Source: Actinomycetota bacterium
GTDB lineage: Bacteria; Actinomycetota; CADDZG01; JAHWKV01; JAOPZY01
Length of the DNA stretch: 57,930 nt
Assembly (NCBI GenBank): GCA_025963875.1
Contig: JAOPZY010000231.1
Location: 1 to 57,930 of the forward strand
Direction: 5' to 3'
Under the pieces are notes generated by a model. That model ran no database searches and was not told the DNA's origin. It saw nothing but the letters and a program-made list of their open reading frames with translations. A program made the translations under genes and the position numbers. Shown piece by piece: positions 14,025-44,951 of the stretch. Each line of letters opens with the position of its first letter. Position 1 is the first letter of the stretch.

Positions 14025-14058
14025 ATACGCACCTCGGGTCGGTTCCAGACGCGGAGAC

Positions 14059-14067
14059 CTTATAGCA
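14059..14067 (-). promoter_or_regulatory. Possible -10 element of the leftward heptose operon
   Basis: On the minus strand this reads GCTATAAGG, a TATAAG-like -10 element about 35 bp upstream of the transaldolase ATG. It lies in the only sizeable gap before the eight-gene operon. No good -35 element is visible, so the call is weak. Confidence 0.3.
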
Positions 14068-14136
14068 TCGGCTGCGTGTGGTGCAGGTTCACCGAACTCC
14101 TCACACTGGCATCCGGAGCGGTTGTTATTAACCCGT

Positions 14137-14153
14137 CCGGTCCTCTGGACCGG
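14137..14153 (-). terminator. Hairpin after the regulator gene
   Basis: A perfect 7-bp stem with a 3-nt loop (CCGGTCC, AGA, GGACCGG on the minus strand) begins 1 bp after the stop codon of the leftward regulator. It is followed by ACGGGTTAATAAC, a weak T-rich tract. It probably separates the regulator from the heptose operon, which reads in the same direction. Confidence 0.55.
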
Positions 14154-14154
14154 C

Positions 14155-15492
14155 TCAGGCGGGCAGGAGCGTGTCGGCGAGATCGAAGAAGTCGGCCACA
14201 GGGTGTGAGTCCCGATGGGCGCTGAGCCGGTGGCGCAGGTCGGCCACGGCGTCGGCCGACCTGGACGAACGGACCGTGGCGGCGAGCCGGACAGTAGAGG
14301 CGGCCTCTGTGGCGGCCGCCTGCAGGTCGTGGTTGGCGAGCGCCGCCCGGGCGAGCGTGGCGTGCGCGAGGGAGCCTCTCCTCGCCCGGCTCTGGCGTTG
14401 GGCCTCGGCAGCGGAGCGGGTGGCGAACCGGGTGGCCTCCTCCGGCTGGTCGAGGTCCCGGAAGGCATGGCCGTACTCGCCGTTCAGGTAGGCCGCGTCG
14501 ATGAAGCGAGCCCACTCGGGTTCTTCGGGCAGGTGGATGGCGCCGGCGGCCCGTTCTGATTCGAGGATGGAGTATGCCGCGGCCTGGCCGTCCCCGAGAG
14601 CGGCCTCGGCTCGTGCCTGCAGGGCCCACAGGTCGGCGAGGCAGGCGGGGCTGCGGCCATGGCGGAGGCCGGCCCGTCCTGCCCGAGCGAGCTGGAGACC
14701 CTGGTCGGGGTGCCCGGTGAGGGTTGCCTGGTCCGAGAGCCCGGCGAGGACATGGGCACCCAGCTCCGGGCTGCGGGCCTCGTGGGAGAGCCGGAGCGCC
14801 TGGATGAGGTAACGCTGGGCCAGGACGTGCTCCCCGTCGTCGAAGGCCATCCAGCCGATCAGGTAGAGCTGCTCGGCACCGGCTTCGTAGAGCGTCCGGC
14901 CGGCGTCGGTGGAGGCGTCGTTCGAGCGGAGCAGGGGTGTGACCGTCGAGGTCAGGTAGGCGGCAAGTTGCTGGCGGGCGTGGCCACCCCCACGCATGAC
15001 GTCCAGCTCCTGGAAGAAACCGAACATCCGACGGATGGCGTCGACCTGGTCGCTGGTCACCTTGCGCGTGGGGGAGGTGGCCTCCTCCAGAGTGGCGAGG
15101 AGCCAGTCCCGGCTTGGTCCGATCGAGGCGGCTACGGCGAAGAGGGCTGTCTTGAGGAAGGTTCTGCGTTTGATGTCGGCCTGCCCCAGCTGGTCGACGG
15201 TCTCGAGGGTGTCAGGGATCGAGGGGGTGTACTCGAGTCCAAGGCGCTGAAGGTCCTCGGATGGCTCGTCGAAGCTGAGCGGGTCGGTGACGAAGAGGGC
15301 GGCAAGGAGCCGCCGGTAGCTGGGGCTGGGTTGCTTCTGGCCGCGCTCCCATTTGGAGACCATGGCGGCGTCCACGCCAATACGTTCGCGGTTCTGCTCC
15401 CATGCGACGCGTGCCAGCTCGGCGGCGAGCTCTTCCTGCGTGAGCCCCCGCTCGATGCGCCGCTGGCGAAGCTGTTCGTTCCAAGCAGTCAT
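14155..15492 (-). CDS. XRE-family regulator with C-terminal TPR-like repeats (module copy A)
   Basis: The 445-residue protein has an N-terminal helix-turn-helix (GLTQEELAAELA, then VSKWERGQKQPS, residues about 16-56). A twin-arginine-like segment KRRTFLKTALFAVAAS follows at 108-123, then a long helical repeat region of TPR type. Such proteins are DNA-binding regulators whose TPR part senses a ligand or partner. It is divergent from two small genes with a 77-bp shared promoter region. A related regulator with homologous small genes lies at 42547-44302. The ATG gives the full HTH; longer upstream frames look non-coding. Confidence 0.82.
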   Translation of the reverse strand: MTAWNEQLRQRRIERGLTQEELAAELARVAWEQNRERIGVDAAMVSKWERGQKQPSPSYRRLLAALFVTDPLSFDEPSEDLQRLGLEYTPSIPDTLETVDQLGQADIKRRTFLKTALFAVAASIGPSRDWLLATLEEATSPTRKVTSDQVDAIRRMFGFFQELDVMRGGGHARQQLAAYLTSTVTPLLRSNDASTDAGRTLYEAGAEQLYLIGWMAFDDGEHVLAQRYLIQALRLSHEARSPELGAHVLAGLSDQATLTGHPDQGLQLARAGRAGLRHGRSPACLADLWALQARAEAALGDGQAAAYSILESERAAGAIHLPEEPEWARFIDAAYLNGEYGHAFRDLDQPEEATRFATRSAAEAQRQSRARRGSLAHATLARAALANHDLQAAATEAASTVRLAATVRSSRSADAVADLRHRLSAHRDSHPVADFFDLADTLLPA

Positions 15493-15569
15493 GTCAGGAC
15501 CGATGAGGGACCGACGAGGACCACCTCGCGGACCTGTTGGGTGAAAGCGGTTCCGCTCAGGATACCGAC

Positions 15570-15818
15570 ATGAGTGGACGGTCGGCCGCGCGACCGCAGT
15601 TCTTGCGCATCTGCTGGGAGATCGCCAACGAAGAGGGGGGCCGGGTGGTTGAGGCCACCCTGTGCCGTGACCACCGGCGCGAGATTGCCCGCAAGTACCC
15701 GGACGCTCGAGGCTCCGGCCAACTCGGTGACTCGTGTGACGCCTGCGCAGGCCGGCAGCCGAGCAGGATCGCAGGTGGCCTCGATGGGCACAGCATCGGA
15801 AGAGTCCCACACCCGTGA
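15570..15818 (+). CDS. Small cysteine/histidine protein, possible zinc-binding (module copy A)
   Basis: The 82-residue protein is unknown to me. It contains ICWE near the N-terminus, then a C-x2-H-x20-C-x2-C arrangement (LCRDHR followed by GDSCDACAGR), which would suit one zinc ion. No signal peptide is present. A homologue with identical Cys/His spacing is encoded at 43854-44075, also next to a regulator of this type, so this is a real gene family. The next gene overlaps it as GTGA. A partner or anti-regulator role for the adjacent XRE protein is inference. Confidence 0.7.
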   Translation: MSGRSAARPQFLRICWEIANEEGGRVVEATLCRDHRREIARKYPDARGSGQLGDSCDACAGRQPSRIAGGLDGHSIGRVPHP

Positions 15819-16045
15819 GCGCCACCGTCCCACGGCCCGACCATCCTCGGCAAGCGCCTGATGCCGAGCGGATGGACCGCATCCTTGCCAAGCTGGGTCA
15901 TGTCTGGCGTCGCGTGCCTGACTGGCGCCTCGCATGGCTGATCGTCAACCTGGTCCCTCCCGGACCCAAGGCGTCGGACACGGCTATCGAGCTCGAGCTG
16001 GATCGTCTGCTCAACCCCGACCTCGGACGGGCTGAGCCAGGATGA
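15815..16045 (+). CDS. Small Trp-rich helical protein of unknown function (module copy A)
   Basis: The 76-residue protein overlaps its upstream partner by GTGA, so the two are probably made together. Its core is RILAKLGHVWRR, DWRLAWLIVNL and SDTAIELELDRLL. This resembles small bacterial proteins carrying a P-D-x-R-L-G-Q-L-x-x-N motif, which as far as I know lack a described function. A homologue lies at 44081-44302 in the second module. Its 3' end overlaps the convergent gmhB-like gene by 35 bp. Confidence 0.68.
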   Translation: MSATVPRPDHPRQAPDAERMDRILAKLGHVWRRVPDWRLAWLIVNLVPPGPKASDTAIELELDRLLNPDLGRAEPG

Positions 16046-34309: not shown

Positions 34310-34344
34310 TTCTGTTTGACCACGTATAAGGTGGTCAAACAGAA
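34310..34344. promoter_or_regulatory. 14-bp perfect inverted repeat upstream of VapBC
   Basis: TTCTGTTTGACCAC and GTGGTCAAACAGAA are perfect complements separated by GTATAAG. The element is 30 bp after the GT gene and 56-62 bp before the possible vapB starts. A VapBC autoregulatory operator is one reading; a terminator for the GT gene is the other. The arms are more perfect and the spacer more AT-rich than typical terminators here. Confidence 0.5.
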
Positions 34345-34393
34345 TCTCGATTTCTTCTGCGCGGCTGGAGCCACCCGTAGGCTCGGCACCTGC

Positions 34394-34399
34394 TACTAT
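34394..34399 (+). promoter_or_regulatory. -10 element for leaderless vapB transcript
   Basis: TACTAT is followed by 6 bp and then ATG at 34406. This places the predicted transcription start on the A of that ATG and argues for translation from 34406. Confidence 0.5.
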
Positions 34400-34405
34400 A
34401 TGAGC

Positions 34406-34654
34406 ATGTTAGACCGTCGACTGCAGATTCTCATCGACGAGGAACGGTGGTCCCGCTTGGAGGACGAAGCCAGCCGGCGCCAGGTCTCCGTCAGCACGCT
34501 GGTTCGCGAGGCCATTGACGAGCGCTATCCCGGCCGCGACCAGGAGCGCAGGGCGGCCCTCCGGGCGCTGCTCGATGCCGAACCGATGCCGGTGCCGGAC
34601 ACCGATGAGCTCCGTCGGGAGCTGGATGACATCAGGAGCCGGCGTCTCGCGTGA
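34406..34654 (+). CDS. vapB: Antitoxin of VapBC pair, ribbon-helix-helix type
   Basis: The 82-residue protein has a ribbon-helix-helix-like N-terminus (LDRRLQILIDEERWSRLEDE, then ASRRQVSVSTLVREAIDERY) that should bind DNA as a dimer, and a C-terminal acidic tail (PDTDELRRELDDI) that would block the toxin. The ATG at 34400 would add two residues; 34406 fits a leaderless promoter. The toxin start overlaps its stop as GTGA. The pair probably autoregulates through the inverted repeat upstream. Confidence 0.78.
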   Translation: MLDRRLQILIDEERWSRLEDEASRRQVSVSTLVREAIDERYPGRDQERRAALRALLDAEPMPVPDTDELRRELDDIRSRRLA

Positions 34655-35082
34655 TCCTGGTGGACACCACGGTGCTGGTCTATGCAGTGGGAACCGACCA
34701 TGCCCTCCGGACGCCCTGCCGCGAGCTACTGCGGCTTGTGGAAGAGGGTCGGGTCAGAGCGACGACGACGGTTGAGGTCCTTCAGGAGTTCGCCCACGTC
34801 CGCGCTCGGCGCCGCTCCCGGAAAGACGCTGCGGCCGTCGCCCGCAGCGCGGCTATCGGCCTGAGCCCATTGGTCCACCCCGAGTTCGAAGACCTCATGG
34901 ATGGTTTGGAATTGTTCCAGACCACCGAGCGCCTCGGTGCCTTCGATGCGGTACTGGCGGCCAGCGCGCGCCGGCAACGGTGGGCAATCGCGTCCGCCGA
35001 CGCGGCATTCGAGGCCGTTCAGGGCCTGCGGCATCTGAACCCCGCATCCCCGACGTTCCTGGAGGACGCTCGGGAGAGCTGA
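34651..35082 (+). CDS. vapC: PIN-domain ribonuclease toxin, VapC-like
   Basis: The 143-residue protein has the PIN-domain acidic residues: VDTTVLVYA near the N-terminus, Glu in TVEVLQEFAHVR, and Asp in GAFDAVLAA and ASADAAF. VapC toxins cleave RNA, often tRNA. It overlaps the antitoxin gene by 4 bp, the usual VapBC order. The pair sits between oppositely oriented glycan genes and looks like an insertion into the locus, though I see no attachment-site repeats. Confidence 0.83.
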   Translation: MILVDTTVLVYAVGTDHALRTPCRELLRLVEEGRVRATTTVEVLQEFAHVRARRRSRKDAAAVARSAAIGLSPLVHPEFEDLMDGLELFQTTERLGAFDAVLAASARRQRWAIASADAAFEAVQGLRHLNPASPTFLEDARES

Positions 35083-42546: not shown

Positions 42547-43671
42547 ATGTCGGTTGGTGCGCTGATTCGTGAGCTACGATCGACCTTGGGCTGGTCCCAG
42601 GGGCGACTGGCGTCCGCGTTGTGCGAGGCCTCACAACATGCCACGGTCAGCCGTGAGGACGTGTCCAGGTGGGAAAACGGCAAGCGGAGGCCCGGGCCCT
42701 TCTGGATGCGGCATCTGGCAACGGTCCTTCAAGTGCCGCTGGAAACGCTGGAAGGGGCAGATGTGCACCGCCGAGACTTTGTCAAAAGCGTTGCCGCAAC
42801 GCTGATCGCGCCCATCGTGGCGTCGGATCTCATCGAGGCGGGCTTTGCGGCCGCCCTGACAAACCGCCGCCTGACCCCGGATAAATGGCAGGACAAGATC
42901 GCTCGGTACGGCCGTGACTACATGTCGCTGGGGGCAGCGGAGATGCAACAGCACTTGACCGGCGATCTCGTCGCGCTTCAGCAACAGCTCGAGGAGCCGG
43001 CATTGTGGGCTGTGGCATCGCGTCTGATGACCCTCTACGGGAAGACGATCCCCGGAACCGACGGCTCCAAGGCGGTCCAGTGGTACAGAATGGCCGCCAC
43101 AGCGGCCGACCGGTCAGAAGATGACGCCTCGCGTGTATGGGTCCGAGGCAGAGCTGCGATCGCCCTCGGGTATGAGGGGGCCTGCCTGCCCGTGGCGGAG
43201 CGTTTTGCGAACCAGGCGCTTGCGATCAGCGACAGGCCGTCGCTCGGAATGCTGAATGCCGTTATGAGCAAGGCGCACATAGCAGCCATCCGAGGTGACG
43301 AACGGGAAGCGTTGCGCCTGCTTCAACAAGGTTGCAAGGTGTTCGACGTGGCGGGTTCGGAGGAGCAGCAGTCCGACTTCGCCATTCCCGAATGGCGCAT
43401 GGCCGTCTTCGCCAGTCTCCTGCTCGCAAGGCTCGGCCACGAGCGTGCCGCCGTTGTGGAGCAGGAGGTGGCCATGCGGAATCTGCCGGCCTCCCTTCCC
43501 CGTTTCGCCACCCACATCGACCTGCACCGCGGCTTGATGCTCGCTCGTGCCGGGGACCGCGCAGGAGGCATTGCCTACGGCCGCGAGGCGCTGCGCAAGC
43601 TCCCACCCGAACGGCACAGCCTGACCTTGCGCATGCTGCTCGCCGAGATCGAAGCCGCACCGGCTCCATAG
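42547..43671 (+). CDS. XRE-family regulator with TPR-like repeats (module copy B)
   Basis: The 374-residue protein has an N-terminal HTH (LGWSQGRLASALC ... VSRWENGKRRPGP, residues about 14-52), a twin-arginine-like HRRDFVKSVAATLIAP at 74-89, and helical repeats to the end (AVQWYRMAATAADRSEDDAS, AALLARLGHERAA-type helices). It parallels the regulator at 14155-15492, and homologous small genes follow each. Here the small genes lie downstream in the same direction after a 182-bp gap. It is probably a ligand- or partner-sensing transcription factor. The ATG is preceded by GAGG. Confidence 0.82.
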   Translation: MSVGALIRELRSTLGWSQGRLASALCEASQHATVSREDVSRWENGKRRPGPFWMRHLATVLQVPLETLEGADVHRRDFVKSVAATLIAPIVASDLIEAGFAAALTNRRLTPDKWQDKIARYGRDYMSLGAAEMQQHLTGDLVALQQQLEEPALWAVASRLMTLYGKTIPGTDGSKAVQWYRMAATAADRSEDDASRVWVRGRAAIALGYEGACLPVAERFANQALAISDRPSLGMLNAVMSKAHIAAIRGDEREALRLLQQGCKVFDVAGSEEQQSDFAIPEWRMAVFASLLLARLGHERAAVVEQEVAMRNLPASLPRFATHIDLHRGLMLARAGDRAGGIAYGREALRKLPPERHSLTLRMLLAEIEAAPAP

Positions 43672-43853: not shown

Positions 43854-44075
43854 ATGAGGAGGGCGCCGCTGCGGCCTGCGGACCGGGGATCCACTTTCCT
43901 CACCATCTGCTGGGAGCAGGCCCATGACGAGGCAGGAGGGGTCGCCCCGGTCCGGGCGACTCTGTGCCGTCAGCACCGGAGCGAGATCGCCAGTACGTAC
44001 CCAACCGCTCGGGGCTGCGGGAAGGCTGGAGACTCGTGCGATGCCTGTCACGGGCGGCCGCCGCAAAGGATCTGA
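43854..44075 (+). CDS. Small cysteine/histidine protein, possible zinc-binding (module copy B)
   Basis: The 73-residue protein has TICWEQAHDE, then TLCRQHRSEIA and GDSCDACHGR, giving the same C-x2-H-x20-C-x2-C spacing as the protein at 15570-15818. Other shared positions are ICWE, EIAxxYPxARGxG and GDSCDAC. No signal peptide or membrane segment is present. I do not recognise a described family. It lies downstream of the regulator, with TGA 5 bp before the next start. Confidence 0.7.
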   Translation: MRRAPLRPADRGSTFLTICWEQAHDEAGGVAPVRATLCRQHRSEIASTYPTARGCGKAGDSCDACHGRPPQRI

Positions 44076-44080
44076 GTGCC

Positions 44081-44302
44081 TTGAACAAGCCTCCTGGGCA
44101 AGCGGCTGATCCTGAGCGAAGGGAGCGCATCCTCGGCAAGCTTGGTCAGGTATGGCGGAGCCTGCCCGGCTGGCGCCTCGCATGGCTTGTCGACAACCTC
44201 GCCCCTCCCGGCACCGATGCCTCCGACGACGATCTCGAGCTGGCGCTGGATCGCGTGCTCCATCTCGACGGCCCACTTCCCCAAGTCAGAAGGGCACCTT
44301 GA
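44081..44302 (+). CDS. Small Trp-rich helical protein of unknown function (module copy B)
   Basis: The 73-residue protein is the homologue of the one at 15815-16045, sharing RIL-KLG-VWR, P-WRLAWL, NL-PPG, ASD and ELxLDRxL. The TTG start has AAAGGA at 44065-44070; a CTG at 44072 is possible. It is followed by a strong hairpin at 44369. It is probably produced together with the Cys/His protein and may act with it. Confidence 0.66.
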   Translation: MNKPPGQAADPERRERILGKLGQVWRSLPGWRLAWLVDNLAPPGTDASDDDLELALDRVLHLDGPLPQVRRAP

Positions 44303-44429: not shown

Positions 44430-44951
44430 CTAGTTCTGCCAGATCTGGTTTGCGCCACCCCACCAGTCCCACACCTGGACCCGGTCGCCGTTGTTGTTGA
44501 TCCCGTTGGCGTCGGCATCGAGAACCTTGCCGTTCGCCAGGTTCTGGAAGACCAGGACGTTGCTTGACCCGGTGTACACCCGCCACTTCTGTTCGGTTCC
44601 GCCCCCACAGGCCCAGAGCTGCACCTTGTCGCCGTTGTTGTCGATGTTGTTGGCATCCGCGTCCAGGCACTTGTCGTCGGCGACATTCCTCAGGCGGAGC
44701 TGCGACGGGTCGTTGGGGTTGATGGGTTCGAGGTACCACTTCTGGTTGTCGCCGCCGTTGCAGTCCCAGAGCTGGACCCGGTCCCCGTTCTGGCTGAGGT
44801 AGTTGGCGTCTGCGTCCAGGCACTTTCCGCTCTGATAGTTGCGGATCACCGCCCCGCCCGACGCATGTGCCGAGCCTGCTATTGCGGAGAGCATCAACGT
44901 GGCGCATGCCACCAACGACAATCCCAACGCGCTGCGTTTGAACACCGACAT
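44430..44951 (-). CDS. Secreted ricin-type beta-trefoil lectin
   Basis: The 173-residue protein has a signal peptide (FKRSALGLSLVACATLMLSA, then IAGSAHA) and a single beta-trefoil of three repeats. Each repeat has a DADANxxxxNGDxVQxW segment and a QxW-type motif (QKW, QKW, QIW). Such domains bind galactose- or xylose-containing glycans; usually they are fused to hydrolases, but here the lectin stands alone. The ATG has an AAAGGAGG site. It could bind the surface polysaccharide or environmental glycans. Confidence 0.88.
   Translation of the reverse strand: MSVFKRSALGLSLVACATLMLSAIAGSAHASGGAVIRNYQSGKCLDADANYLSQNGDRVQLWDCNGGDNQKWYLEPINPNDPSQLRLRNVADDKCLDADANNIDNNGDKVQLWACGGGTEQKWRVYTGSSNVLVFQNLANGKVLDADANGINNNGDRVQVWDWWGGANQIWQN

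What the first reader, a model, noticed from the sequence alone, without database searches (positions are those of the whole stretch)
14155..16045. Duplicated three-gene module: XRE-TPR regulator plus two unknown small proteins (copy A)
Seen: a regulator on the minus strand faces two plus-strand small genes that overlap by GTGA. The first small protein has a C-x2-H-x20-C-x2-C pattern and the second a Trp-rich WRLAWL core. Both have homologues next to a second regulator of the same architecture about 27 kb away. Inference: the set travels together and the small proteins may control, or be controlled by, the regulator, much as small proteins accompany XRE regulators in WhiJ-type cassettes or peptides accompany RRNPP regulators. 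I know of no described system with these parts.
Basis: partly seen in the sequence, partly recalled or inferred. Interest (0 to 1): 0.78.

Follow-up and report, generated by a model that had tools for sequence, protein, structure and literature searches.

The report
Small Cys/His protein with interchangeable regulators
One bacterial genome carries twelve copies of a small, undescribed, probably metal-binding protein, eleven of them shown (and the twelfth likely) to sit beside a DNA-binding regulator gene, but the regulators come from unrelated families, as if one output had been wired to many different switches; the reported three-gene set is two of these twelve.

Summary
Copy A is regA (15492-14155, minus; NsdA-family XRE-TPR), sp1A (15570-15818) and sp2A (15815-16045), with a GTGA overlap. 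Copy B lies 28 kb away. The small proteins are 66% and 63% identical between copies; the regulators are only distantly related. Neither small protein reaches a Pfam, NCBIfam or PHROG model.

The three genes are not one fixed system. sp1 has 12 copies in this genome (9 intact, 3 frameshifted), and 11 lie within 2 kb of an HTH_31 or GntR match (P about 1e-15); the twelfth lies beside a regulator recognised only by eye. The regulator types differ: XRE-TPR, XRE plus an SCO3933/Pra-like gene, GntR-UTRA, WhiJ-type XRE with DUF397. DNA similarity between copies often covers only the sp1 gene and its ribosome site, so sp1 has been re-paired with unrelated regulators. sp1 was found in no other genome searched. 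sp2 occurs only at A and B and is a distant relative of small phage/plasmid proteins near DUF1040 that have no regulator neighbour. In the sister genus the copy A site is empty.

Best reading: sp1 is the regulated output of adjacent regulators, placed like pra beside korSA or iosA beside whiJ. Its activity is unknown.

The parts
14155..15492 (-). regA: XRE HTH plus TPR-like regulator, 445 aa, NsdA family
   Evidence: NCBIfam NF053720 NsdA_fam_reg 2.5e-105 (cut-off 75 bits, score 353.5); HTH_3 1.9e-8
15493..15569 (.). 77-bp divergent intergenic region between regA and sp1A, presumed shared promoter/operator region
   Evidence: four GGACC at about 11-bp spacing, but the periodicity is not significant against simulation (793 of 5000)
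15570..15818 (+). sp1A: 82-aa C-x2-H...C-x2-C protein, one of 12 genomic copies
15815..16045 (+). sp2A: 76-aa helical protein, distant relative of DUF1040-like phage/plasmid proteins; GTG start overlaps the sp1A stop; its 3' end overlaps the convergent GmhB-like gene by 35 bp
14025..16010 (.). extent of the insertion relative to sister genus G001, where the GmhB-like gene and the transaldolase-like gene are neighbours with about 50 bp between them
42547..43671 (+). regB: XRE HTH plus helical C-terminal region, 374 aa, not in the NsdA family model
   Evidence: HTH_31 4.9e-11; no NsdA match
43854..44075 (+). sp1B: 73 aa, 66% identical to sp1A
44081..44302 (+). sp2B: 73 aa (TTG start assumed), 63% identical to sp2A over 59 aa

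Best explanation
sp1 is a small, probably zinc-binding effector or accessory regulator that is the controlled output of the DNA-binding regulator encoded beside it. Each copy has been placed under a different guard: XRE-TPR (NsdA type), other XRE, GntR-UTRA (the broad class of KorSA/SCO3932) or a WhiJ-type XRE. When a guard receives its own signal it releases (or activates) the shared promoter region and sp1 is made; at copies A and B sp2 is made with it. Different inputs thus converge on one kind of output. Shown: the family, its copy number, its adjacency to regulators, the exchange of regulators between related sp1 copies, the empty site of copy A in a sister genus. Inferred: zinc binding, that the neighbour controls sp1, and what sp1 does.
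For: 12 copies in the genome; 11 of 12 within 2 kb of an HTH_31/GntR match although only 35 such matches exist in 3.84 Mb. Regulator type switches inside two well-supported sp1 clades, C200 GntR with C113/C115 XRE-TPR and C10 GntR with C109 XRE-like, and DNA identity of 74-85% between such copies stops at the sp1 gene and its ribosome site (C10/C109: -14 to +195). Geometry is that of a target gene: divergent from the regulator or downstream of it with its own 180-200 bp gap, never overlapping it. Operator-like repeats differ by locus: a 50-bp inverted repeat over a TTGACA-18-TATCGT promoter-like sequence before sp1 at C10, 19-nt arms in the GntR-sp1 gap at C200, duplicate blocks 126 bp apart in the WhiJ-sp1 gap at C45. 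Published precedents have the same geometry: SCO3932 (GntR) binds the promoter region it shares with SCO3933, and its homologue KorSA represses pra (PMC8584621); WhiJ9 binds the intergenic region and is needed for activation of the adjacent iosA (PMC10294661).
Against: No expression, binding or metal data. No recognised fold: Foldseek finds nothing better than E 2.3 for the sp1 model. No operator is shared between loci, and the 77-bp gap of copy A has no significant repeat. Three copies are broken, so at least some are dispensable. The family is known from one assembly only.
Confidence: 0.5

Rival explanations
1. sp1 is a protein partner of the regulator, as BldB/DUF397 proteins are thought to be of WhiJ proteins: it binds the regulator and changes its DNA binding.
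For: Paralogue family of about 70-90 aa next to regulators, as with bldB beside whiJ (PMC10294661); C45 has a WhiJ-type/DUF397 locus.
Against: The partners are structurally unrelated (GntR-UTRA, XRE-TPR, XRE-DUF5753), so no common docking surface is expected. At C45 the DUF397 partner is present as well and sp1 lies on the opposite strand. sp1 never overlaps the regulator in an operon.
Confidence: 0.22
2. Toxin-antitoxin-like pair: sp1 (or sp1-sp2) is toxic and the regulator acts as repressor or antitoxin.
For: Small gene beside a DNA-binding gene, many copies, interchangeable regulator, lineage restriction, decayed copies, copy A inserted as a unit.
Against: The regulators are 256-638 aa full regulators, not short antitoxins; no toxin family match. 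XRE/DUF397 pairs, once proposed as TA, did not behave so in tests (PMC10364602).
Confidence: 0.14
3. sp1 is a passenger of degenerate integrative elements (pSAM2/SCO3937-like) and its link to regulators is inherited from those elements.
For: Three copies follow an SCO3933/Pra-like gene (NF051478, 3e-16 at C116, below its cut-off); the GntR regulators are of the UTRA class; a NUDIX-like gene lies near the C3 copy (by eye).
Against: Nine of twelve copies have no SCO3933-like neighbour; no integrase or transfer gene was recognised near the copies (reading; not all neighbours were profile-scanned); intact copies keep protein-level selection.
Confidence: 0.14

Closest known systems
bldB-whiJ-abaA/iosA paralogue cassettes of Streptomyces (PMC10294661; PMC10364602)
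   Same: Many paralogous small proteins beside XRE regulators; a small gene of unknown structure next to a WhiJ regulator (iosA); C45 has the same layout: sp1, XRE-DUF5753, DUF397.
   Different: sp1 is not DUF397 and matches no described family model tried; its neighbours include GntR and NsdA-type regulators.
korSA-pra / SCO3932-SCO3933 of actinomycete integrative elements (PMC8584621)
   Same: GntR regulator controlling a small adjacent gene, either divergent or downstream; three sp1 copies follow an SCO3933-like gene.
   Different: sp1 is a separate protein; no integration or transfer genes recognised nearby; XRE guards replace GntR at most loci.
NsdA/NsdB family TPR-like regulators (NCBIfam NF053720; PMC12243394)
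   Same: regA and the C113 and C115 regulators are members by the curated cut-off.
   Different: The passages read describe no small Cys/His protein with NsdA; regB is outside the model.
DUF1040 (YihD) and the small phage/plasmid proteins near it
   Same: sp2 aligns with them: W...P-D-x-R-L-x-x-L...D, helical.
   Different: sp2 itself gives no DUF1040 match; the relatives reach only 1.7e-4 to 0.016, below the cut-off; relatives have no regulator neighbour.

Membership tests
NsdA family regulator (regA) | score above the curated cut-off of NF053720 over the full length | tested here: met
   353.5 bits against 75, residues 7-435
NsdA family regulator (regB) | score above the curated cut-off of NF053720 | tested here: not met
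   not listed at E <= 1
NsdA orthologue proper (regA) | NF050130 equivalog cut-off 830 bits | tested here: not met
   108.5 bits
WhiJ-type XRE with DUF397 (C45 neighbour of sp1) | HTH_31 plus DUF5753, followed by a DUF397 protein | tested here: met
   DUF5753 2.2e-64, DUF397 1.3e-21; Sco1979 family above cut-off
BldB/DUF397 (sp1) | DUF397 domain | tested here: not met
   no DUF397 match at E <= 1 for sp1A, sp1B or three paralogues
DUF1040 (sp2) | Pfam PF06288 gathering score | tested here: not met
   no match for sp2A/sp2B; phage relatives 1.7e-4 to 0.016, below the cut-off
RRNPP quorum-sensing pair | TPR regulator with a secreted pro-peptide gene next to it | tested here: inconclusive
   sp1/sp2 are 73-82 aa and sp1 is modelled as a folded domain; no signal-peptide predictor was available
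Type II toxin-antitoxin | toxicity relieved by the partner | not testable with these tools
   no family match for the small proteins in Pfam, NCBIfam or PADLOC
zinc-binding protein (sp1) | four conserved metal ligands and metal binding | tested here: inconclusive
   C, H, C, C invariant in 9 intact copies; metal binding itself not testable; no fold match

The most novel reading that the evidence does not exclude
sp1 founds an undescribed family of small Cys/His effectors that works as a universal output module: one genome attaches it to about a third of its HTH_31/GntR regulators irrespective of their class, so that unrelated sensors feed a single kind of response.
Probability: 0.3. Interest if true: 0.82.

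Novelty: new variant of a known kind. Interest (0 to 1): 0.6.

Why it matters
Regulator cassettes in actinobacteria (WhiJ/BldB/AbaA, KorSA/Pra) normally keep one class of regulator. Here the small protein is the constant part and the regulator is the exchangeable part. If sp1 is the output, it gives a natural series for asking what a regulator-target pair needs in order to be rewired, and a concrete candidate for an unknown cellular response that several signals converge on.

Tried and rejected
Conserved three-gene system: rejected, since regulators differ and sp2 is in only 2 of 12 loci. sp1 elsewhere: collection scans gave no confirmed relative, tblastn of phage and plasmid records found nothing beyond chance, 23 class relatives gave none at 1e-3, and about 400 phylum genomes gave none at 1e-4 (only 13 candidates scored per genome) or only chance pieces at 0.01. 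Weak sp2 profile hits in 5 phylum genomes lie inside long unrelated frames, and the sp2-like piece on C235 has no intact gene. Copies as transposons: no shared terminal repeats seen at the ends of the similar DNA. Contamination of the assembly: contig pieces correlate 0.94-0.99 with the window in 4-mers, and C113 and C144 carry what look like core genes (reading; not scanned). A GGACC array as the regA operator: not significant. Rfam: nothing at sp1. Structural match for either small protein: none.

Full report
What is there. regA is a clear member of the NsdA family of TPR-like regulators (NF053720, 2.5e-105). regB is a different XRE regulator with essentially only HTH matches. The small proteins match no Pfam, NCBIfam or PHROG model at a meaningful level.

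sp1 is a family of its own. A two-sequence profile found about ten further places in the same genome; an eight-sequence profile fixed the number at twelve. Nine are intact. Three (contigs C3, C259, C144) are broken by frameshifts. C-x2-H and C-x2-C are invariant. The reading frame is under selection. AlphaFold2 gives two strands, a helix that begins at the C-x2-H, a third strand and the C-x2-C loop, mean pLDDT 82, with no convincing match among solved structures.

sp1 is tied to regulators. The genome has 23 HTH_31 and 12 GntR matches at E <= 0.01. Eleven of twelve sp1 copies lie within 2 kb of one of them; chance for a random place is about 3.6%, binomial P 1.7e-15, taking copies as independent, which is generous because C3 and C116 share a whole cassette. 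The twelfth (C109) lies beside a gene that I recognise by eye as an XRE-like regulator but that no NCBIfam model matched. The partners are: NsdA-type XRE-TPR at A, C113 and C115; another XRE with a helical C-terminal part at B; XRE plus SCO3933-like at C3, C116 and C259; GntR at C10, C200 and C144 (UTRA domain tested at C10); WhiJ-type XRE-DUF5753 with DUF397 at C45.

The regulators have been exchanged. In the sp1 tree C200 (GntR) groups with C113 and C115 (XRE-TPR), and C10 (GntR) with C109 (XRE-like), both with strong support, while the C10 and C200 GntR proteins are 38% identical to each other. Pairwise DNA similarity of 74-85% starts 14-36 bp before the sp1 start and ends near its stop in the pairs C10/C109, C109/C144, C113/C115 and C115/C200. 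So either sp1 moved as a single gene or the regulator next to it was replaced. Copy A is an insertion, or a loss in the sister: in G001 the syntenic cluster has the GmhB-like and transaldolase-like genes side by side.

sp2. It occurs only at A and B. A plasmid protein of Miltoncostaea oceani (46% over 51 aa, E 0.01, a weak hit by itself) leads on to a set of phage and viral-contig proteins with the pattern RDPxRI..W..PDMRLGQLL...EDD, which match DUF1040 weakly. None of the neighbourhoods shown had a recognisable regulator next to it, by reading gene calls rather than by profile scan. sp2 is modelled as three to four helices, pLDDT 76. Its function is unknown; cotranscription with sp1 at A and B is inferred from the overlap or close spacing.

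How it works. sp1 lies divergent from the regulator, or downstream of it with its own gap; it does not overlap it. At C45 the layout sp1 / XRE-DUF5753 / DUF397 is that of iosA / whiJ9 / bldB9, where WhiJ9 binds the intergenic region and is required for activation of iosA (PMC10294661). At C10 the order GntR then sp1 is that of korSA then pra, and at C200 and C144 the divergent order is that of SCO3932/SCO3933, whose shared promoter region SCO3932 binds (PMC8584621). Repeats suitable as operators are present at C10, C200 and C45 and not demonstrable at A. I therefore prefer sp1 as regulated output (0.5), over partner of the regulator (0.22), toxin (0.14) and passenger of old integrative elements (0.14).

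Limits. One assembly of 273 contigs; organism not named by the tools (Actinomycetota, from the DUF397/NsdA families, is inference). Absence elsewhere is absence from the collections and sensitivities used; the phylum searches scored only 13 candidates per genome. Zinc binding, control of sp1 by its neighbour and any activity of sp1 are inferred. My gene calls come from a simple codon-usage caller.

Noticed in passing
L032:9414-9636 (C45 intergenic region): Two tandem copies of a block, 54 nt at 85% and 35 nt at 89% identity, spaced 125-126 bp, between sp1 and the WhiJ-type regulator.
   Followed up: partly
window 16011-16045: The 3' end of sp2A overlaps the convergent GmhB-like gene by 35 bp, so the insertion junction lies at or inside the end of sp2A.
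   Followed up: partly
window 34331-35082: A short RHH-like gene followed by an overlapping PIN-domain-like gene; looks like a VapBC-type pair (by eye).
   Followed up: no
window 44430-44951, minus: Secreted lectin-like protein with repeated QxW-type motifs directly downstream of copy B (by eye).
   Followed up: no
L028:7041-8957, L029:6479-8194, L033:6434-7678: Large XRE regulators with an unknown C-terminal region, each beside an SCO3933-like gene and sp1; the C3 and C116 proteins are 76% identical, the C259 one is decayed.
   Followed up: partly
L034:4158-4239, L035:8865-8923, L052:about 1530-1556: GGAGGGGA...TCCCCTCC-type inverted repeats a few tens of nt before the sp1 start in the C200/C113/C115 branch; no Rfam match.
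   Followed up: partly
L030:2052-2135, minus: c-di-GMP-I riboswitch aptamer about 6 kb from the C10 sp1 copy.
   Followed up: no
viral loci L063-L072, phage loci L060-L062: A set of small phage proteins with the core PDMRLGQLL...EDD that sits near DUF1040 but below its cut-off; the five scanned have at best weak matches to a PHROG of unknown function.
   Followed up: partly
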